From positions 118,321-182,320 of the forward strand of contig NZ_CP012200.1 in the NCBI RefSeq assembly GCF_001484685.1: 64,000 nt of DNA, written 5' to 3'. Below the pieces are notes generated by a model. The model saw only the letters and a list, made by a program, of their open reading frames with translations, did not search any database and had not been told where the DNA came from. Of the stretch, positions 5,374-13,122 are shown in pieces. A program made the position numbers and the translations under genes. This DNA is from Thermococcus sp. 2319x1. GTDB lineage: Archaea; Methanobacteriota_B; Thermococci; Thermococcales; Thermococcaceae. Every line of letters begins with the position of its first letter. Within the stretch, counting starts at the first letter, position 1.

Positions 5374-6029
5374 CCCCTTACCCCCAGTATCTCCCTCCAG
5401 ATGGGATTGTTGTGGACAATTATCCACCACTCCTTAAGTTCTTTTCTCTTTTTCCTCCAGTCTGGGTGGAATTTCCCAACCAACGTCCAAAATTTTTTGG
5501 AGTGATTCATCTCTATAAGATGAGCTACCTCGTGTGTTACGAGATAGTCAATGAGCTCAGGGGGCAGGGCAAGCATTGCTAAATTGAAGCTTAGGTTCCC
5601 CTTTGGGGAGCAGCTTCCCCATCTCGTTCTCTGTTTTCGGATGAAAATTCTTTTTGGCTTGACACCTAAACTCGCAGCACGTTCTTCAACAAGGGGCACC
5701 AATAATGTTCTAAGCTCGTTTTTTAGAGTTTTCTCAAGCTTTCTTTTGTCTGAAACTTCTAAAACTTTGTTATCGGTGAAAATCTTTCCATCCCTAAATG
5801 GGTAGAACTTTCCCAGATAAGGAAACCCTCGAATGTTTTTTGCCCTCTCAATTTTCTCAAGCTTTGAGAGTATCCAATCCTCCTTTTCTTTTAGGAACCT
5901 TTCAACTCTTCTCGTTGGAGAGACGATGTAGAGTTTTCCCTCTGGACTTACGTAGATTCTCACATATCTTACCCTTCTCACGCTGACTTCGTACTGGATC
6001 TTCTTCCCATTAAGGTCTATTTCCGGCAT
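5370..6029 (-). CDS. YgjP/SprT-like zinc metalloprotease
   Basis: A 219-residue protein of the YgjP (DUF45, M48-related) family. HEVAH at 166-170 plus a third ligand in EMNHSKKFW (His176) form a gluzincin-type zinc site. RWGSCS at 136-141 is the family hallmark before the catalytic helix. E. coli YgjP has also been reported as a UTP pyrophosphatase, so proteolysis is not certain. It is the first gene of a two-gene unit with the PhnP-like hydrolase. Confidence 0.8.
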   Translation of the reverse strand: MPEIDLNGKKIQYEVSVRRVRYVRIYVSPEGKLYIVSPTRRVERFLKEKEDWILSKLEKIERAKNIRGFPYLGKFYPFRDGKIFTDNKVLEVSDKRKLEKTLKNELRTLLVPLVEERAASLGVKPKRIFIRKQRTRWGSCSPKGNLSFNLAMLALPPELIDYLVTHEVAHLIEMNHSKKFWTLVGKFHPDWRKKRKELKEWWIIVHNNPIWREILGVRG

Positions 6030-6113
6030 ATTATCTCTTTGAAGCTTGAAGCTTAAGTATTTATCTAATGAGAACGATTTAATATCTTGGAGTCAAACTT
6101 CTGTGGGGTAAAC

Positions 6114-6836
6114 ATGAAGAAGATACTTTACGCAATCCTAATAGCAGGATTTTTTGCAATACTCGGCTCTACCATGAGTAAATCTCCAACCTTGCCACTC
6201 TATGCTCAAAGTTTGGGGTTAAGCAGGGGAGAGATTGGAATTGTTGCGGCGGCATCAACTATAACGGGTATTTTTATGAACTTTGTCTCAGGGCTTTTGA
6301 GCGATATCTATGGGCGAAAAAAGCTTCTTAAAATAAGCGGCTTTGTATTCTTCTCTGCGCCCCTTCTTTACTTCTTTGCTAACAATGCTATAGCGTTAGC
6401 TTTGGTAAGGGCCTACTATGGGATAGCAACTGCTATATTTGTTCCTGTTTCCCTTGCTTTAATCAGTGACTTATATTCTGAAAAGAAAGGTACTTTTATG
6501 GGGATTTTAAGTTCTGCAACTCTCGTGGGGAGAGCCATTGCTCCGTTATTGGCAGGGAGCTTAATATATTTCGCAGGATTTTGGATTGTTTTTATTTTGT
6601 GTTCTTTCTTTGGATTTATTACCTTTGCAATAACTTTTACGTTACCTGAAGCAGAAGGAGAATTAGAGAAGTTTGAGTTTTCATTTAGTTCCACCCTCTT
6701 TCTTCTTGGTCTGTTGGATGCAGCTGTTTATATGGCTTATCAAAGTATTGAAACATTTTTACCTCTTTTCTACTTTCTTGAAGACAAAGCTTGTTAGGGT
6801 TTATTAAGTGGCTGTTTGCTAGCTATTCCAATCCTG
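6114..6836 (+). pseudogene. Truncated MFS transporter
   Basis: An N-terminal MFS half, starting at ATG 6114 behind GGGG. It has about six membrane helices and the signature loop GLLSDIYGRKKLLK near residue 60. The reading frame stops at a TAG at 6795-6797 (228 codons), whereas MFS proteins usually have about 400. Reading on in the same frame gives GLLSGCLLAIPILLFF, which looks like the next helix, so the TAG is probably a nonsense mutation. The homology then ends exactly where the minus-strand ABC gene begins at 6837. The remaining half of the transporter is not found on the far side of the island. Confidence 0.75.
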
Positions 6837-7739
6837 CTATTTTTCTAGGATTCCGGTGAATATTTTCTCTATAGGAGTCTCTTTTGGTTTCACTTCATAT
6901 ACATTAATCCCTTGGGTGAGCAATATCTTCATGATCGCTGGAACTTCATCATTATACCTTGAAACCATCACAGAAATTCCCGTGTTTTCCACGTTAACGT
7001 TATACCCAAACTTCTCTAAGAGTTCTTTTGCCCTTATTTTTTTATCAACTTTAAACACCACTTCAATGCTACTAACTTTACTTAGTAAATTCTCCAATCT
7101 TTCCTCCAAAACGAGCTTTCCCTCCTTCATTATTGCAACCCTGCATTTTACCCCCTCAAAATTCTGGAGCTCGCTTAGAATGTGGGTCGAAAACAGAATG
7201 ATTTTGCCTTCTTTCAGCATCTCAAAAATTTTGTCTCTTAAGCTTAAAGCTGTTGGAATGTCCAAATTGCTAAACGGTTCATCCAAAACTAGAATGTCTG
7301 GATTGTGAAGCAATGCTCTCGCTAAAGCGAGCCTCTTTCTAAAGCCTCTACTTAGATATCCGGCTTTTGTATTTTTGTATTTTTCAAGTCTAAATTCTTT
7401 TAGAAGTTCATTAATCCGTTCTTCTTCAACATCATAGATCTTGGCGAAAAATCGCAGATTCTTGTAGACCGTTAGATCTGGATAAACTCTCTCTCCCTCC
7501 GGCAGATACCCCATCTTTCTTTTAGCGTTTTCGGGTTCCACCCAAAGATCAATTCCATCAACTACGACCCTACCACTGGAAAGCGGCAAAATACCGGTGA
7601 TTGCTCTAAATGTTGTGGTTTTACCTGCACCATTGGCTCCCAATAATACATAAATTTCCTTTTTTATTGCGATAAAGCTTAGATTTTCTATAACATCGCC
7701 GTTACCATAACCTGCACTGATATTTTCGACCTCAAGCAT
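6837..7739 (-). CDS. ABC transporter ATP-binding protein of the RiPP-like operon
   Basis: A 300-residue ABC-2-type ATPase. Walker A GANGAGKTT is at 34-42, Walker B ILVLDEP at 149-155 and an H-loop in FSTHIL. The signature motif is degenerate, LSRGF (129-133) instead of LSGGQ. A C-terminal domain of about 90 residues follows, as in exporters of the BcrA/NatA type. It is the last gene of the seven-gene operon and starts at ATG 7739 behind GGGGTGA, 11 bases after the permease stop. Export of the modified peptide or self-immunity is the likely role; this is inference from context. Confidence 0.8.
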   Translation of the reverse strand: MLEVENISAGYGNGDVIENLSFIAIKKEIYVLLGANGAGKTTTFRAITGILPLSSGRVVVDGIDLWVEPENAKRKMGYLPEGERVYPDLTVYKNLRFFAKIYDVEEERINELLKEFRLEKYKNTKAGYLSRGFRKRLALARALLHNPDILVLDEPFSNLDIPTALSLRDKIFEMLKEGKIILFSTHILSELQNFEGVKCRVAIMKEGKLVLEERLENLLSKVSSIEVVFKVDKKIRAKELLEKFGYNVNVENTGISVMVSRYNDEVPAIMKILLTQGINVYEVKPKETPIEKIFTGILEK

Positions 7740-7750
7740 GAAATCACCCC

Positions 7751-8554
7751 TTAATTTGTAATGAATGCCAAGCGATTGATGACACGCTTGCCCAACATTG
7801 CTATTATTAGTGAAGCTACCAAAGAACAAATCCCCAGGAGCAGATATATCTGGAATGTTCTGTTTAACCCTAATTTTGCCGATGCAAAGGATATTATAAT
7901 TGGCGTCAAAACTAAAGGCAAGCTCATTAGGTTTATAAGCTCTGAGCTCTTTATTTTTACACTCACTACTAGTCCTGTGCTAATAGAGAACATCATCATT
8001 GAAAAAGGAACGAACACTGTGATGATAATGAAGTATAGTGTGGGATGCCATATACTTCCTAGTGCTTTTAGATGTAGATACTGGATGAGGAAGAAAAGAG
8101 ATGCAAAAGCAAAGCCCCATGAGAGCAAACTGAAGAACACTGTCGATAACAATTTCCCCAGGAGTATCTCGGATTCTGAAAGAGGAGATGAAAAAAGGAT
8201 TTCCATAGTTTTATTTAATTTCTCATTGAAAAAAGAGGAGACAATTGAAGCATAAGAACTCAAGGCAGATACTAATATTACAACTACCGATAATTGGGAT
8301 ATCAGGGCGGCAAATGTTATTGCATCTTCGCCCATTTTTGCTACTTCATTTTCAGAAAGTCCAAACACTAAAGGGCTCTCAGATATTTGCTCCATGGCAA
8401 GCTGTTTTGAATAGGATGTTAAGTACCTTGGTCCACTCACAATCAACAACATTCCAATAACAAGTATAATTACAGCATTTGCTAATAGTCCAGCCAACTG
8501 TTTGTTTGCAAAGTACTGCCAGACCTCTTTCATGAGTACTGGCTTAATTCCCAT
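7751..8554 (-). CDS. ABC-2 type permease of the RiPP-like operon
   Basis: A 267-residue membrane protein with six predicted helices (about 22-42, 85-108, 140-160, 170-195, 210-227, 235-257). A soluble loop between the first two helices and the segment SSFFNEKLNKTMEILFSSPLSESEILLGK are typical of ABC-2 exporters of the NatB/YhaP kind. Its ATG shares one base with the TAA of the upstream gene (TAATG). It would form the membrane half with the ATPase that follows, dimerising or pairing with itself because only one permease is encoded. Confidence 0.8.
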   Translation of the reverse strand: MGIKPVLMKEVWQYFANKQLAGLLANAVIILVIGMLLIVSGPRYLTSYSKQLAMEQISESPLVFGLSENEVAKMGEDAITFAALISQLSVVVILVSALSSYASIVSSFFNEKLNKTMEILFSSPLSESEILLGKLLSTVFFSLLSWGFAFASLFFLIQYLHLKALGSIWHPTLYFIIITVFVPFSMMMFSISTGLVVSVKIKSSELINLMSLPLVLTPIIISFASAKLGLNRTFQIYLLLGICSLVASLIIAMLGKRVINRLAFITN

Positions 8555-8991
8555 TATTTTCTCACCTCTATGACTTTTTCTTTTATGCTTTCGTCCAGTA
8601 TAGCATCTATAACCTCATGAATATTATCAAAAGCTAGGTAGTATCTTTTCCCGTCTGTGGCCTCTATGAGCAAGCCAGAATCTGAACTGGCATAGGAAAC
8701 TACCTCTCCATATTTACCTTTGTATTTGCCAATTCTATACCGGCCAAATTCTAGCCCCCCAAGTCTCCAGACAAGCACATCTCGGTAATCTTTAACTTGG
8801 AAATCTCTAACTCTAATTGGAACTGTTCTCCTTTTTGTTTTTATTACAAGAATTACTTGGTTGTTCTCATGTCGAATAATAACTGCATGGGGCACATATG
8901 CATCAAAAAAGCCATATTTTATGAGTGCAAGGACTAGCCCAACTATTCCTAATGTAATAAATAAGGACAACAAAATAGAATTATCCACCAT
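8554..8991 (-). CDS. Membrane-anchored PH-like domain protein in the RiPP-like operon
   Basis: About 145 residues: one N-terminal membrane helix (residues 4-24), a basic beta-rich stretch (VIIRHENNQVILVIKTKRR) and a C-terminal segment, RYRIGKYKGKYGEVVSYAS then GKRYYLAFDN and a closing helix. The C-terminal part resembles the bacterial PH-like fold (bPH_5 group) often seen in membrane proteins next to exporters. Assignment is by pattern only. A GTG at 9000 is an alternative start; ATG 8991 fits the GTGAG ribosome-like site better. In this operon it is a candidate immunity or exporter accessory protein. Confidence 0.5.
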   Translation of the reverse strand: MVDNSILLSLFITLGIVGLVLALIKYGFFDAYVPHAVIIRHENNQVILVIKTKRRTVPIRVRDFQVKDYRDVLVWRLGGLEFGRYRIGKYKGKYGEVVSYASSDSGLLIEATDGKRYYLAFDNIHEVIDAILDESIKEKVIEVRK

Positions 8992-9412
8992 TATTCTCAC
9001 GCTCTTTGTTGTTGTTTTGCATGATGTCCCTCAGTATATCTACGAAGTGGATATCGGTATTCTGCTTCTGGAGATATATAAATTCGTTGGTAAATAACCA
9101 TAATATGGCGTTTTTTAAGTCATTTTTTATTATCCTCCTTGGGGTTTCTGGATAGATAAGACACAGATGCGTGACAAGGTCTGAAAATTTTACACTCCCT
9201 TTTTTCTGGAGTATTTTTATGATCTCCCCCATGGTTGGATTCATCACGGTGATTTTCCATGTAATTGGATTAAATCCCACAACTCTCCCATCTCTCTCGA
9301 ATCTAAATTTTAAATTTTTGAGTAAGCTGATCATATATTTATCAGAGCTTACTTCAGTTAGCAAACCGTTAATATGCTTATCAATATTGGTTATCAAGCT
9401 ATTAGTTATCAT
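8981..9412 (-). CDS. PqqD-like RiPP recognition protein
   Basis: A 143-residue soluble protein. Residues about 36-115 follow the PqqD/RRE layout: a beta hairpin (FERDGRVVGFNPITWKITV), the common MNPT turn at 57-60, a helix (MGEIIKIL), then two more helices in the winged-helix part (SVKFSDLVTHLCLIYPE and KNAILWLFTNEFI). RREs bind the leader of a precursor peptide and hand it to the modifying enzyme. It overlaps the radical SAM gene as ATGA (9409-9412), as expected for a partner. The N- and C-terminal extensions are unlike free-standing PqqD, which is about 90 residues. Confidence 0.7.
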   Translation of the reverse strand: MITNSLITNIDKHINGLLTEVSSDKYMISLLKNLKFRFERDGRVVGFNPITWKITVMNPTMGEIIKILQKKGSVKFSDLVTHLCLIYPETPRRIIKNDLKNAILWLFTNEFIYLQKQNTDIHFVDILRDIMQNNNKERENNGG

Positions 9413-10593
9413 GTTGATAACACCTCCCTAATATTTCTTGCTAGAATGGACAAATCTTCTTCATTTAATTGTAATATATCCAAGTAATCTGAACCTATCC
9501 TTGTCATAAAGAGAGATTTCAACTTGAGGATATCTCTCTCAGTTTTTAGATAGGAGGATATTGATAAAAGCACAGGGTTATCTCTCCATGCATATTCCAA
9601 ACCTTCTTTCCATAGTTTTTCTATTCCATCTGAAACATGACCGTAAGCCAAACTCAAATATGGAGTGGGAAGAATATAACCTTCTGCACTTATTGAAAGG
9701 GAAATCAGTGAGACATATGGACCTATTATGATATGCTCTGTTGGATCGCCAAATTCAATTCTAGTGGAATACTCAAAACTATGTTCGAATATCCACGTTA
9801 TTAATTTCCTGTATTGATCATCAGTCGGCATTAGTTTCACATGTTCGAAGGTTTCAGGAACAAAATACATTGTGCGAACAGATAAAACCTCAAGTTTGTC
9901 ACATAACTCAACAGTTTCTGGAAAGTTATCTATATTTAGTTTTGTTGAACAGAAACTTACAATTGTTGGAATATTGTATTCGATCAGATTCTTTATTGCG
10001 TTGATAGCTCTGTTGTATGAACCTTTAGGTCTTAGTTTTTCCATAATCTCAGGTCTGGAGCCATCTAAAGATACTTGGACAGCGGCAATACCACTTTCAG
10101 CAAGTTTTGAAGCAAAGTTGTCGGATATTAATGAGCCATTAGTTACCATGTTAACATCGATCCCCCTTTCGTTAGCATATTGTATAATATCAAACAAATC
10201 CCTACGAAGTGTTGGCTCACCTCCACATAAACATAAGACCAGAACATTTAATTTCGCCAGTTCGTCTATGACATTAAATATCTCCTCTCTGCTGAGTTCT
10301 CTGCGAATTACATCTGGAGAACAACCAATGTAACAATAGGGACAATTGTAGTTACATCGATATGTAACATCGATTGCTGCAGAAACAGGGCCCTTTAGAT
10401 TTTCCGGCCAGATGCGATACTTACGATAAAGACTTCTAAGCTCGCTAAATATCTCTGGGATCTCTTTTAATTCCCCAGCCCTGTAAGGTACATTTGTACC
10501 AGTTGACATTTGAATAAATCTGCTGAGAATATTCGAAAAAGAATAATAAAACGTTTGAAGTTCATTTGATAGACTGCCAACACCCAGTCTCAT
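9409..10593 (-). CDS. Radical SAM peptide-modifying enzyme
   Basis: A 394-residue radical SAM protein. The cluster-binding motif CNYNCPYC has cysteines at 80, 84 and 87, GGEP follows near 133, and the barrel continues to about 290. The C-terminal part, EGYILPTPYLSLAYGHVSDG then IEKLW, has the outline of a SPASM/PqqE tail but the usual cysteine is threonine and no other SPASM cysteines are present. An N-terminal extension of about 70 residues precedes the barrel. The gene follows two small peptide genes by 12 bases and overlaps a PqqD-like gene, the classical setting of a RiPP maturase. Start ATG 10593 lies behind AGGTGA; an upstream GTG sits inside that site. Confidence 0.85.
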   Translation of the reverse strand: MRLGVGSLSNELQTFYYSFSNILSRFIQMSTGTNVPYRAGELKEIPEIFSELRSLYRKYRIWPENLKGPVSAAIDVTYRCNYNCPYCYIGCSPDVIRRELSREEIFNVIDELAKLNVLVLCLCGGEPTLRRDLFDIIQYANERGIDVNMVTNGSLISDNFASKLAESGIAAVQVSLDGSRPEIMEKLRPKGSYNRAINAIKNLIEYNIPTIVSFCSTKLNIDNFPETVELCDKLEVLSVRTMYFVPETFEHVKLMPTDDQYRKLITWIFEHSFEYSTRIEFGDPTEHIIIGPYVSLISLSISAEGYILPTPYLSLAYGHVSDGIEKLWKEGLEYAWRDNPVLLSISSYLKTERDILKLKSLFMTRIGSDYLDILQLNEEDLSILARNIREVLST

Positions 10594-10605
10594 TATCTTC
10601 ACCTT

Positions 10606-10866
10606 TTATGTCAAGTTTTTACTCAAGGTGCTATGCTGTATCTTTGGATCTCTAATTAGGGAAGCATTGCCATGTAAAAGCCACTTTGCTATCCATGCTG
10701 CTACTCCCCAAACAACTGCGACATACATTGCAGCAATAACCCATACTGCCGCAGCCGCCATAACCGTACCGCCAACATTTAATACATACGCATGGCTTAT
10801 TGCTATTTCTTTGGTAATTCCTGAAGTAATACCAACATCACCCCCAACAGGAGGCAAATAGCTCAT
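10606..10866 (-). CDS. Candidate RiPP precursor peptide B (86 aa)
   Basis: A short peptide starting at ATG 10866 behind a perfect GGAGGTGA. The N-terminus reads YLPPVGGDVG, matching YIPPIGEDLG in the gene before it. Residues 31-33 are VGG, followed by a strongly hydrophobic stretch (about 35-63) rich in Ala, Val and Trp (Trp42, 53, 58, 62) and a polar basic tail. There is no cysteine, so thioether sactipeptides and lanthionines are excluded. Its start overlaps the stop of the first peptide gene (ATGA) and the radical SAM gene follows 12 bases later. A small membrane protein unrelated to RiPPs is the alternative. Confidence 0.7.
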   Translation of the reverse strand: MSYLPPVGGDVGITSGITKEIAISHAYVLNVGGTVMAAAAVWVIAAMYVAVVWGVAAWIAKWLLHGNASLIRDPKIQHSTLSKNLT

Positions 10867-11033
10867 GCACTTTCACCTCCTGAGGTTTTGTCTTTTAACG
10901 GTAAGGACCAAATAACTACGAAAAGGACTGGCATAATCTGAGTGAATATTGGTCCTGGGCCACCGACTTCAACTACAACACTTCCAAGCCCGTGTCCAAG
11001 ATCCTCTCCGATGGGAGGGATATACTCTCCCAT
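10863..11033 (-). CDS. Candidate RiPP precursor peptide A (56 aa)
   Basis: A 56-residue peptide starting at ATG 11033 behind GGAGGGAG; a longer frame from 11063 lacks a ribosome site. The N-terminus EYIPPIGEDLG matches peptide B, and VGG occurs at 23-25 before a hydrophobic stretch (IFTQIMPVLFVVIWSLPL) and a polar tail. It has no cysteine, serine appears at 18, 43, 51 and 55, and glycine and proline are frequent. It is the first gene of the operon, just behind the promoter, where precursor genes usually lie. The shared head and differing hydrophobic tail suggest leader and core, but cleavage and modification are inferred. Confidence 0.7.
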   Translation of the reverse strand: MGEYIPPIGEDLGHGLGSVVVEVGGPGPIFTQIMPVLFVVIWSLPLKDKTSGGESA

Positions 11034-11078
11034 TAATACTCCCTCCAGTTTAACATTATGCATAATTTGATATGTTGC

Positions 11079-11097
11079 TATAAATATTTATTCTTTT
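11079..11097 (-). promoter_or_regulatory. Promoter of the RiPP-like operon
   Basis: On the minus strand the stretch reads GAAAAGAATAAATATTTATA, a good BRE plus TATA box. Transcription would begin near 11055, about 20 bases before the first precursor gene. The seven genes downstream have gaps of at most 12 bases or overlap, so this is the only evident promoter. Confidence 0.55.
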
Positions 11098-11227
11098 CGT
11101 AAACTCTAAGTTACCAACTTCAAGTTTCTAAATTTCTTAAAAAAAAGTAAGTCCTTAAAAAGCTCCTTCTTCTAGATTACAAATGAGTAACTATATAAAA
11201 CTTTGAATAGTAAATAAAAATTTAATT

Positions 11228-11279
11228 CTTTATAAGCATCTCATCCAAAGATAGTGATGGAAGCTAAGATTTAAATCTT
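11228..11279 (+). promoter_or_regulatory. TATA box and 14-bp palindrome before the MBL gene
   Basis: TTTATAAG at 11228-11235 is followed by the perfect palindrome AAGATTTAAATCTT at 11266-11279, which would lie just after the start of transcription. The placement fits a repressor site, but AT-rich palindromes also arise by chance. The rest of the 11064-11298 gap is AT-rich and holds no reading frame I can support. Confidence 0.4.
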
Positions 11280-11298
11280 GGAGGATTAACTTCATAAC

Positions 11299-12428
11299 AT
11301 GGTACTCTCCTTTAAGCCTGTGTGGTTTGATTCCTTGGGATCCAAGAGTTCATGTGTCTTCGTTAAAACACCTGACATCTCGATCTTAATAGATCCGGGT
11401 GTCGCTATTATGCATCCAAGTTTTCCAGCCACTGAAGAAGAGAAAATCGAATGGCTTATTGAGGGGGAGAAGGCAATAAAAAAGGCCAGTGAAAAGGCCG
11501 ATATTATTGTAATTTCTCACTATCACTACGATCACTACTTTCCAAGCGATTTAGATATGTATGGGGAAAAACACTCTTAGTTAAGAACCCAAATGAGTAT
11601 ATAAACGATTCCCAGAGAGAACGAGCCGAGTATTTTTATTCCAATTTCTACAGGTATTATGGAGAATTAAAGTTGGAGGATATCTGGAAAGAACCAGAAT
11701 CGCGAGAATATCCAAATCCAATGGAAGAGCTACCAATAGCATTCTCCAAGGATTTCGGAGATTACAACAAGCGAAGGAAACAACTCCTTGAAAAAGGCCT
11801 TAAGTGGTTCAGAAATAGGGTCAATAAATGGAATCGAAACCCAAAAATTCCTGAGATGAGTTTCAAGAATCTTCGAGTTGTGTTTGCTGATGGGAGAGAA
11901 TTTCAGTTTGGAGACACAAAAGTCAAATTTACGAAACCTCTCTTTCATGGAATAGAGTTTTCAAGAGTGGGTTGGGTGATTTCAACTGTTATTGAACATG
12001 AAGAAGAAAAGTTAATCCATTCAAGTGATTTAAATGGCCCTATAATAGAAGACTATGCGGAGTGGATAATTAGAGAAAATCCAGATATCTTAGTCTTAGA
12101 CGGCCCTATGACATATATGCTTGGTTACCTCCTCAATAAAATCAATTTAAGAAGAGCAATTGAAAATGCGGTTAGAATTGTGAAAGAGACAGATGCAGAG
12201 ACTATTATCTACGATCACCACCTCCCGCGAGAGCGTCATTTTAGGGAGCATACGAGAGAGGTGTGGGAAGTTGGAGAAAAGCTCAACAAAAGTGTTTTAA
12301 CGGCCGCCGAGTTCTTGGGAAAGAAGCCAAAAGTTCTGGAAGTCACTCTTAAAAATAAAAAAAGGAGATCAGTTCAGAGAATGCAAATGATGTCATCTTT
12401 TTGGTGGAAAAACACCAAGCTGTCGTAA
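11299..12428 (+). pseudogene. UPF0282-like MBL-fold hydrolase, frameshifted
   Basis: Two reading frames form one archaeal metallo-beta-lactamase-fold protein of the UPF0282 type. The first (11299-11580) holds SLGSKSSCVFV and the metal motif SHYHYDHYFPSD. At about 11568 the frame breaks in GGGGAAAAA; one extra base would restore GKTLLVKNPNEYIND and join the second part, which has LFHGIEFSRVGWVI, HSSDLNGP and the closing YDHHLPRERHF histidines. Together they give about 375 residues, near family size. The last 25 or so residues overlap the convergent SnoaL-like gene and look unrelated, so the 3' end may also be damaged. A sequencing error is a real alternative. Confidence 0.75.
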
Positions 12429-12812
12429 AATAGCAATCTCGTTGCTTACCCACCACATTTCTGCAACTTTATCTCCTTCGAAGCGGTATACAGTCATACC
12501 TTCAAAGCGGACCTTTTTTCCAGTAGGTGGAATTCCCATAAACTCGCCCTTTTGGGTTCCAGTTACTGTCCACCGTACCGCAATTTTATCTTCCTCAGCT
12601 ATCATGTCTTCGATAGTTGCGTGAAAATCTGGAAGCGTCTTGTGAACTTCAACTACCCATTTTTTAAATGAGGCAAAGTCTGAAACCTCAGGAATATTAG
12701 GATGGTGATTTTTGAAATTTGGTGTGTAAAACTTGTCTATTACTTCCACATTTCCCCTGTTCCAGATTTCGTCGATTATCGTTTGGAGGATTCTTTTTCT
12801 TTCTGTGCTCAT
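12393..12812 (-). CDS. SnoaL-like polyketide cyclase family protein
   Basis: A 139-residue protein with the SnoaL/NTF2-like pattern: IIDEIWNRGNVEVIDKFYTPNFKNHHP at the start, DFHATIEDMIAEEDKIAVRWTVTGTQKG in the middle, GIPPTGKKVRFEGMTVYRFEGDKVAEMWW near the end (each shortened here to recognise the family). Members include ester cyclases and proteins of unknown activity, so no reaction is assigned. It starts at ATG 12812 behind GAGGGGGTGA. The family is more common in bacteria and soil archaea than in Thermococcales, so transfer with the adjoining accessory region is possible. Confidence 0.8.
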   Translation of the reverse strand: MSTERKRILQTIIDEIWNRGNVEVIDKFYTPNFKNHHPNIPEVSDFASFKKWVVEVHKTLPDFHATIEDMIAEEDKIAVRWTVTGTQKGEFMGIPPTGKKVRFEGMTVYRFEGDKVAEMWWVSNEIAILRQLGVFPPKR

Positions 12813-12843
12813 TTATTTTCACCCCCTCTTACGCTGTGTATCT

Positions 12844-12906
12844 GAGTTATTTGAGAACCAGCCTTTTGATAGCCTTTTGGTAAGGTACCAGGCACTCAAA
12901 AAACTC
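12844..12906. repeat. 16-bp imperfect inverted repeat with internal direct repeats
   Basis: GAGTTATTTGAGAACC at 12844-12859 is mirrored by GGCACTCAAAAAACTC at 12891-12906, with 13 of 16 pairs matching. Inside it AGCCTTTTG occurs twice, at 12860-12868 and 12871-12879. It lies in the leader of the SnoaL-like gene and could fold as an RNA hairpin or be the remnant of a small mobile element. The rest of the gene-free stretch to 13122 holds a possible TATA (AATATATAC near 12935) and nothing else I can support. Confidence 0.45.
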
Positions 12907-13122
12907 AACTTATTACTATGAATAGGACTTAGGTAATATATACTTTTGTATTATGTGGGAATGTAGTAATTATGACGTTTACAAAGAATTAGAGCATTTT
13001 GACAAATTCAAACAAAACTTTAAACAAAGTTTCATGTAAACTCGCGCCTTACAAAAACAGAACTTCAAATATCGAATTATGGAAGAAAAATAAAATGAGG
13101 GTGGATTATTTTTCTGCAGAGA

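What the first reader, a model, noticed from the sequence alone, without database searches (positions are those of the whole stretch)
10606..11033. Two precursor-like peptides share a head motif and a VGG step before different hydrophobic tails
Peptide A starts EYIPPIGEDLG and peptide B SYLPPVGGDVG. Each has VGG (residues 23-25 and 31-33) before a hydrophobic segment: PGPIFTQIMPVLFVV in A, a Trp/Ala/Val-rich stretch in B. This looks like a conserved leader, a double-glycine-like cleavage site and diverse cores, possibly a two-peptide bacteriocin.
Basis: partly seen in the sequence, partly recalled or inferred. Interest (0 to 1): 0.85.

Follow-up and report, generated by a model that had tools for sequence, protein, structure and literature searches.

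The report
Archaeal peptides with lasso-type leader motif
A heat-loving archaeon carries a small operon in which two short greasy peptides share a docking tag that probably brings them to a radical enzyme for chemical modification, and close copies of the operon are scattered and shuffled among its relatives like a weapon-and-immunity set, although no activity has been shown.

Summary
The peptides are real. Both begin with the same ten-residue head, Y-x-P-P-x-G-x-D-x-G. In a family-wide DNA scan the head pattern gave 14 matches in 8 of 94 Thermococcaceae genomes. Seven of those 8 carry the same operon; the eighth holds a remnant. The operon is peptide A, peptide B, radical SAM enzyme, discrete RiPP recognition element (RRE), small bPH membrane protein, ABC-2 permease, ABC ATPase. 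The RRE's predicted fold matches lasso-peptide B1 RREs solved with their leaders best. The head has the YxxP spacing that such RREs bind. So the head is most likely an RRE docking leader and the system a radical-SAM RiPP.

The VGG cleavage idea fails: VGG occurs at that place in 1 of 5 B peptides, and 10 genomes, including the 8 carriers, show no C39 peptidase. A's tail is as conserved as its head; only B has a fixed head and variable tail. Peptides without cysteine and an enzyme without SPASM cysteines make thioether chemistry unlikely.

A 7.36-kb substitution-free stretch shared with another species, mosaicism and a deleted paralogue suggest a mobile competition locus. Modification, killing and two-peptide synergy are inferred.

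The parts
11081..11090 (-). TATA-like box (TAAATATTTA) upstream of peptide A
   Evidence: read by eye; the region recurs at two places in the own genome's L062
10863..11033 (-). peptide A, 56 aa, head YIPPIGEDLG, VGG at 23-25, hydrophobic 19-mer from residue 28
   Evidence: dN/dS 0.11-0.18; GGAGGG before the ATG
10997..11024 (-). head motif DNA of peptide A
   Evidence: pattern match
10606..10866 (-). peptide B, 86 aa, head YLPPVGGDVG, VGG at 7-9 and 31-33, Ala/Val/Trp-rich hydrophobic part
   Evidence: dN/dS 0.21
10833..10860 (-). head motif DNA of peptide B
   Evidence: pattern match
9409..10602 (-). radical SAM enzyme (GTG start listed; ATG at 10593 after GGTGA is the likelier start)
   Evidence: PF04055 E 1.2e-29; nearest solved relative SkfB; no SPASM cysteines
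8981..9412 (-). discrete RRE, PqqD/lasso-B1-like, 143 aa
   Evidence: AF2 pLDDT 89.2; TbiB1 Z 9.4, PqqD Z 8.2
8554..9000 (-). small membrane protein with bPH_5 domain
   Evidence: PF10882 E 9.3e-5
7751..8554 (-). ABC-2 type permease
   Evidence: PF12698 E 2e-8
6837..7736 (-). ABC ATPase (start at the ATG of MLEVENIS; the longest ORF begins at 7829)
   Evidence: PF00005 E 3.7e-29; homologues align over 1-299

Best explanation
The locus is a radical-SAM RiPP operon of Thermococcaceae. Peptides A and B are precursors. Their shared head, YxPPxGxDxG, is the leader that docks on the discrete RRE through its YxxP element. The RRE hands the peptides to the cysteine-poor radical SAM enzyme, which modifies a residue or residues in the hydrophobic part; the chemistry is unknown, but thioether formation is unlikely because the peptides have no cysteine. 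The bPH membrane protein with the ABC-2 permease and ATPase exports the product or protects the producer. The product is most likely a membrane-active peptide used against related archaea. Shown here: operon, head motif, purifying selection, RRE fold (predicted), motif-operon linkage, mosaic exchange. Inferred: leader docking, modification, export or immunity, killing.
For: Operon with overlapping or abutting genes. Head pattern in 8 of 94 genomes, 7 of which are among the 8 of 94 with the RRE; the RRE genome without a head (G006) is cut at a contig start, and the head genome without an RRE (G034) holds a remnant with a bPH gene. RRE model pLDDT 89; best PDB matches are TbiB1 with TbiA leader (E 1.5e-3, Z 9.4), PqqD and another lasso B1 with leader. 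Lasso leaders carry YxxPxLxxxGxxxxxT (PMC6856326, passages); YxxP is the RRE contact in lasso and LPP leaders, and PQQ leaders are said to carry it too (PMC13381572, passages). A and B share Y, P and G at positions 1, 4 and 10 of that register; the L061 A peptide lacks the last G. Radical SAM core E 1.2e-29; closest solved relative is the maturase SkfB, E 2.1e-27. Purifying selection. Exchange between lineages: substitution-free block, L048 98-100% in bPH-ATPase but 81% in the radical SAM part present, L047 83% in A and 79-84% in the ATPase but 48-60% between them.
Against: Position 6 of the leader is Gly, not the hydrophobic residue of the lasso consensus. Foldseek found no match at E <= 0.001 for the RRE, and PqqD's Pfam model is reached at E <= 1 by only 3 of 7 members. 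No leader peptidase was identified. A's tail is as conserved as its head, unusual for a diversifying antimicrobial core. One carrier (L059) has frame breaks in the enzyme and the ATPase, and one (L060) in B. No product, modification or activity is known. The radical SAM model was poor (pLDDT 58.5).
Confidence: 0.62

Rival explanations
1. A and B are small membrane proteins, not precursors of a secreted product: the radical SAM enzyme modifies them (or something else) and they stay in the membrane as parts or partners of the ABC transporter complex; the head is a protein-protein contact site.
For: Hydrophobic 19-residue stretches (mean hydropathy 1.8 and 2.3); strong conservation of A's tail; no protease gene in the operon; peptide A and transporter kept in L062 without the enzyme.
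Against: Head linked to the RRE in 7 of 8 genomes; the head has the YxxP spacing of RRE leaders; L059 and L060 have the transporter but no A with the head.
Confidence: 0.2
2. Double-glycine two-peptide bacteriocin: leader removed after VGG during export, unmodified hydrophobic cores act together.
For: VGG in both window peptides; two tandem peptide genes; GG before the hydrophobic part in 4 of 5 A peptides with VGG and LGG in the fifth.
Against: GG at the site in 2 of 5 B peptides; no C39 peptidase in 10 of 10 genomes; A's tail not diverse; a pair is not present in L059 and L060.
Confidence: 0.07
3. The conserved head is itself the modified part, as in cofactor pathways, and the tails only anchor the peptide in the membrane; the product is a small head-derived compound or a signal.
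For: The head is the most conserved part of B; the enzyme's best NCBIfam hit is the mycofactocin maturase (124 bits, cut-off 265); RRE-radical SAM pair as in PQQ and mycofactocin.
Against: RRE-type leaders are normally conserved for binding; A's tail is conserved as well; cofactor models score far below cut-off.
Confidence: 0.08

Closest known systems
Lasso-peptide leader/RRE pairs (TbiA-TbiB1, FusA-FusB1) and linear polyphosphorylated peptides (LPP)
   Same: Discrete RRE; leader with Tyr and Pro three apart; for LPP also a conserved N-terminus with variable C-terminus (PMC13381572, passages)
   Different: No lasso leader peptidase (PF13471 in 0 of 8 carrier genomes), no cyclase or kinase gene in the operon; a radical SAM enzyme instead; Gly at leader position 6
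PQQ and mycofactocin pathways (PqqD/PqqE, MftB/MftC)
   Same: Discrete RRE plus radical SAM enzyme acting on a short precursor (recalled); best NCBIfam hit of the enzyme is MftC
   Different: 124 bits against a cut-off of 265 for MftC and 111.9 against 381.35 for PqqE; no SPASM cysteines; two long hydrophobic precursors; ABC transporter genes
Epipeptide locus yydFGHIJ of Bacillus subtilis
   Same: Radical SAM enzyme, short membrane-active peptide, two-gene ABC transporter once postulated for self-protection (PMC7026026, abstract and passages)
   Different: That locus has a membrane protease (YydH) and, as recalled, no separate RRE; YydG is only a distant match (E 7.7e-5). In that paper LiaIH, not YydIJ, is the main resistance factor
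Sporulation killing factor maturase SkfB
   Same: Closest solved relative of the enzyme by sequence (E 2.1e-27, positions 64-318)
   Different: Makes a Cys thioether (recalled); A and B have no Cys

Membership tests
RRE-dependent radical SAM RiPP | radical SAM tailoring enzyme with CxxxCxxC in the operon | tested here: met
   PF04055 E 1.2e-29; invariant C83, C87, C90 in 5 of 5 aligned
RRE-dependent radical SAM RiPP | RRE (PqqD-like) fold in the operon | tested here: met
   AF2 pLDDT 89.2; Z 9.4/9.3 to TbiB1, 8.2 to PqqD; Foldseek best E 1.5e-3; Pfam PqqD weak, 3 of 7 members at E <= 1
RRE-dependent radical SAM RiPP | short precursor(s) with conserved leader | tested here: met
   head linked to the operon; head/tail contrast present for B, absent for A
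RRE-dependent radical SAM RiPP | post-translational change of the core | not testable with these tools
   needs mass spectrometry
Lasso peptide | leader YxxPxLxxxG | tested here: inconclusive
   Y1 and P4 in 10 of 10 A/B peptides compared, G10 in 9 of 10 (not in the L061 A peptide); position 6 is Gly, not Leu/Val/Ile (motif)
Lasso peptide | transglutaminase-like leader peptidase (PF13471) | tested here: not met
   0 of 8 carrier genomes; control rings in 2 of 14
Double-glycine two-peptide bacteriocin (class IIb) | C39 peptidase transporter | tested here: not met
   0 of 10 genomes, control 8 of 14
Double-glycine two-peptide bacteriocin (class IIb) | conserved GG cleavage site in both precursors | tested here: not met
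   GG at the proposed site in 2 of 5 B peptides (VGG in the window, IGG in L058)
Sactipeptide / ranthipeptide | Cys residues in the core | tested here: not met
   0 Cys in 10 of 10 A/B peptides
Sactipeptide / ranthipeptide | SPASM/twitch auxiliary cluster cysteines | tested here: not met
   no column after C126 is Cys in all 5 enzymes, position 218 in 4 of 5; no SPASM among the Pfam hits; the SPASM pattern itself is recalled
Mycofactocin / PQQ | equivalog score of the radical SAM enzyme | tested here: not met
   124 vs 265 bits, 111.9 vs 381.35 bits
Epipeptide | radical SAM epimerase giving D-residues | not testable with these tools
   enzyme model too poor (pLDDT 58.5); YydG distant

The most novel reading that the evidence does not exclude
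A previously undescribed archaeal RiPP family in which a lasso-type RRE and leader serve a SPASM-less radical SAM enzyme that changes Ala/Val-rich membrane peptides, perhaps by epimerisation with the invariant CxC before the GGEP motif (C124/C126) as hydrogen source, to give a heat-stable, membrane-active archaeocin with its own ABC immunity, traded between Thermococcaceae as a cassette.
Probability: 0.12. Interest if true: 0.82.

Novelty: new variant of a known kind. Interest (0 to 1): 0.58.

Why it matters
If right, the YxxP leader with its discrete RRE, described for lasso, PQQ and LPP pathways, also works in hyperthermophilic archaea with a radical SAM partner, which shows how portable this docking module is. 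It would give archaea, for which few modified antimicrobial peptides are known (recalled), a testable radical SAM RiPP that may act on membranes at very high temperature, in a family with genetically tractable members (recalled).

Tried and rejected
Tried without gain: plasmid collection (456 records, all under 60% identity, general radical SAM relatives); viral contigs with the enzyme (3 distant loci, 27-33%) and with the RRE alignment (33 pattern hits, none confirmed); RRE profile against PDB sequences (0 hits); RRE profile in another archaeal phylum (0 of 23, no positive control); a fold of the enzyme (pLDDT 58.5, not used); PADLOC (enzyme hits are viperin models, E 2.8e-23, read as superfamily similarity). 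The genome-contig scan gave 12 loci, of which only L031 (84%) is the same system; the other 11 are 25-33% identical.

Rejected: double-glycine export, sacti/ranthipeptide, lasso peptide as such (see membership table). Weak leads not used: B of L047 and L061 against the SdpC family (E 0.55 and 3.4) and the L059 Cys-rich peptide against the halocin C8 domain (E 0.14), all far below cut-offs. A Thr at leader position 16 (lasso consensus) is present in B of the window, L058 and L047, but one residue earlier in L059, L060 and L061 (by eye), so I give it no weight.

Rows dropped: L046 (identical to the window) and L048 (contig starts inside the enzyme) were not put in the peptide alignments; L031 is the same record region as L058 and was used once; the L059 enzyme was left out of alignment A1 and L060's B out of A4 because their frames are broken; the truncated L088 A was left out of A3. 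Two saturated dS values (L047 enzyme and RRE) were discarded. In that script's global alignment L062's 5' part did not align because of its deletion; its peptide A identity comes.

Literature: 9 of 10 searches used. Searches looked for an account of such a system in Thermococcales, Pyrococcus, Thermococcus or archaea; searches returned 0 papers; no listed title or abstract start of 44, 45 and 58 describes it. From PMC4158269 and PMC6393860 I read passages only; none describes it. Many subscription papers and all bioRxiv preprints are not held, so this is not proof of absence.

Full report
What is there. The window lies in a 1.96-Mb genome (G000, C1:118321-182320). A close relative of the operon lies in a record named Thermococcus (L031). 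On the minus strand, 11033 down to 6837, seven genes follow one another with short overlaps or gaps: peptide A (56 aa), peptide B (86 aa), a radical SAM enzyme, a 143-aa protein, a 148-aa protein with a bPH_5 domain, an ABC-2 permease and an ABC ATPase. A and B overlap by four bases, and the ribosome site of B (AGGAGGTGA) lies inside the end of A. That explains part of the conservation of A's last residues (SGGESA); I take those residues as no evidence about the peptide.

Is it real. A degenerate DNA pattern for the head gives two matches in the window, both at the finding, and none in 100 shuffles. In 94 genomes of the family it gives 14 matches in 8 genomes, and none for the reversed pattern. 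The RRE protein is found in 8 of the same 94 genomes (the profile search finds the same 8, plus one weak hit in another genome, among 115 genomes of the phylum). Seven genomes are on both lists. The eighth with an RRE, G006, has a contig that begins inside the enzyme gene. The eighth with a head, G034, holds a truncated peptide A beside a bPH gene and an ATPase scrap. So the head belongs to the operon. Between the window and relatives, dN/dS is 0.11, 0.17 and 0.18 for A and 0.21 for B.

Head and tail. Identity to the window, head of ten residues versus aligned tail: A 9/10 vs 41/43 (L058), 9/10 vs 37/43 (L047), 10/10 vs 36/41 (L062), 4/10 vs 10/24 (L061); B 9/10 vs 46/66 (L058), 9/10 vs 17/69 (L047), 8/10 vs 25/67 (L059), 6/10 vs 8/36 (L061). 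A C39 peptidase, the usual double-glycine protease, is absent from 10 of 10 genomes searched, among them all 8 carriers; the same search rings in 8 of 14 control genomes.

What the head probably does. The 143-aa protein is predicted with confidence (pLDDT 89.2). Among solved structures its best matches are TbiB1, a lasso-peptide RRE solved with its leader (Foldseek E 1.5e-3 and 5.6e-3; Z 9.4 and 9.3), PqqD (Z 8.2) and a further lasso B1 with leader (Z 7.8). A histone-methyltransferase domain also reaches Z 8.3, and Foldseek gives no match at E <= 0.001, so the fold match alone is good but not overwhelming; the gene context and the leader add to it. Lasso leaders carry YxxPxLxxxGxxxxxT (PMC6856326, passages). 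Discrete RREs of lasso and LPP systems bind [Y/W]xxP, usually with a hydrophobic residue two further on, and PQQ precursors carry the like (PMC13381572, passages). A and B have Tyr at 1, Pro at 4 and Gly at 10 of this register (the L061 A peptide lacks the Gly), with Gly at position 6. I read the head as the RRE-docking leader, with a local variation.

The enzyme. It has the radical SAM core (E 1.2e-29). Its nearest solved relative is the maturase SkfB (E 2.1e-27), then PqqE (4.4e-18); the epimerase YydG is distant (7.7e-5). In the five aligned enzymes the only invariant cysteines are C83, C87 and C90 of the cluster and C124 and C126 just before GGEP. No column after 126 is Cys in all five (218 is in 4 of 5), no SPASM model is hit, and A and B contain no Cys in 10 of 10 peptides. 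Thioether chemistry and an auxiliary cluster are therefore unlikely. The CxC pair could supply hydrogen in an epimerisation; that is a guess from recalled enzymology. The enzyme's model was too poor to test it.

Behaviour in the population. Against G003, a different species of the same genus, 7360 bases (5572-12931) have no substitution and one single-base indel, while the remaining 5636 compared bases carry 454 substitutions. In L048 the bPH-ATPase part is 98-100% identical, but the radical SAM part held is 81%. In L047 peptide A is 83% and the ATPase 79-84% identical at DNA level, with 48-60% in between. The own genome holds a second locus (L062) with a peptide A copy at 87% protein identity, no peptide B or enzyme match, an RRE remnant, and bPH, permease and ATPase genes. 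Patchy presence, exchange of ends and middle, and a transporter kept after loss of the enzyme are what I would expect of a weapon-and-immunity locus, but they do not prove it.

Exceptions that count against a tidy story. L059 and L060 have only B with the head. In L059 a 33-residue Cys-rich peptide stands where A should be, joined to A's last bases, and the enzyme and ATPase genes have broken frames; in L060 B itself is broken. L061 has two short peptides with the head but much shorter tails. No leader peptidase was found.

Verdict. A new variant of a known kind: a radical SAM RiPP with lasso-type leader docking in hyperthermophilic archaea. Confidence is about 0.62 in the whole reading including membrane activity, higher in the RiPP part alone. 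The literature searches made (listed in Tried and rejected) gave no account of it in the open library held here.

Noticed in passing
L096:609-3494, L097:2318-5202, L099:2873-5754: A second, distinct Thermococcaceae RiPP-like locus: a ~50-aa Cys-rich peptide (repeated CxxxC) followed by two radical SAM-like genes (about 500 and 410 aa; only the first hits Pfam Radical_SAM) and, in two of the three, an ABC permease-like gene; sactipeptide-like by eye. L059 carries a short relative in front of peptide B.
   Followed up: partly
L062:6278-8860 (own genome, G000:C1 near 1463 kb): Paralogous locus with peptide A, no peptide B or enzyme, an RRE remnant, and kept bPH, permease and ATPase genes.
   Followed up: partly
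L062:10995-13000: A third copy of the peptide A upstream region (76% identical to window 11030-11223) stands before 32- and 55-aa ORFs and another ABC-2 transporter, hinting at shared regulation.
   Followed up: no
L089:4832-8347 (own genome): Another radical SAM/RRE neighbourhood: an enzyme split in two ORFs, a 94-aa RRE-like ORF, a radical SAM enzyme with SPASM-like cysteines (by eye) and an MFS transporter.
   Followed up: no
window 11299-12428 and 6087-6797: The flanking metallo-beta-lactamase-fold gene looks split between two frames, and the MFS gene on the other side is short (236 aa), as if both flanks were decayed.
   Followed up: no
L047:1255-2766: A 503-aa secreted-looking protein with GHG and ESCS motifs by eye (C25-peptidase-like, recalled; no Pfam hit at 1e-3) sits directly downstream of the L047 operon; a possible but untested leader peptidase.
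   Followed up: partly
L047:7225-9022 and L061:8174-10277: A second ABC transporter (ATPase and permease, 72% and 84% identical between the two) lies beside the operon in both genomes.
   Followed up: partly
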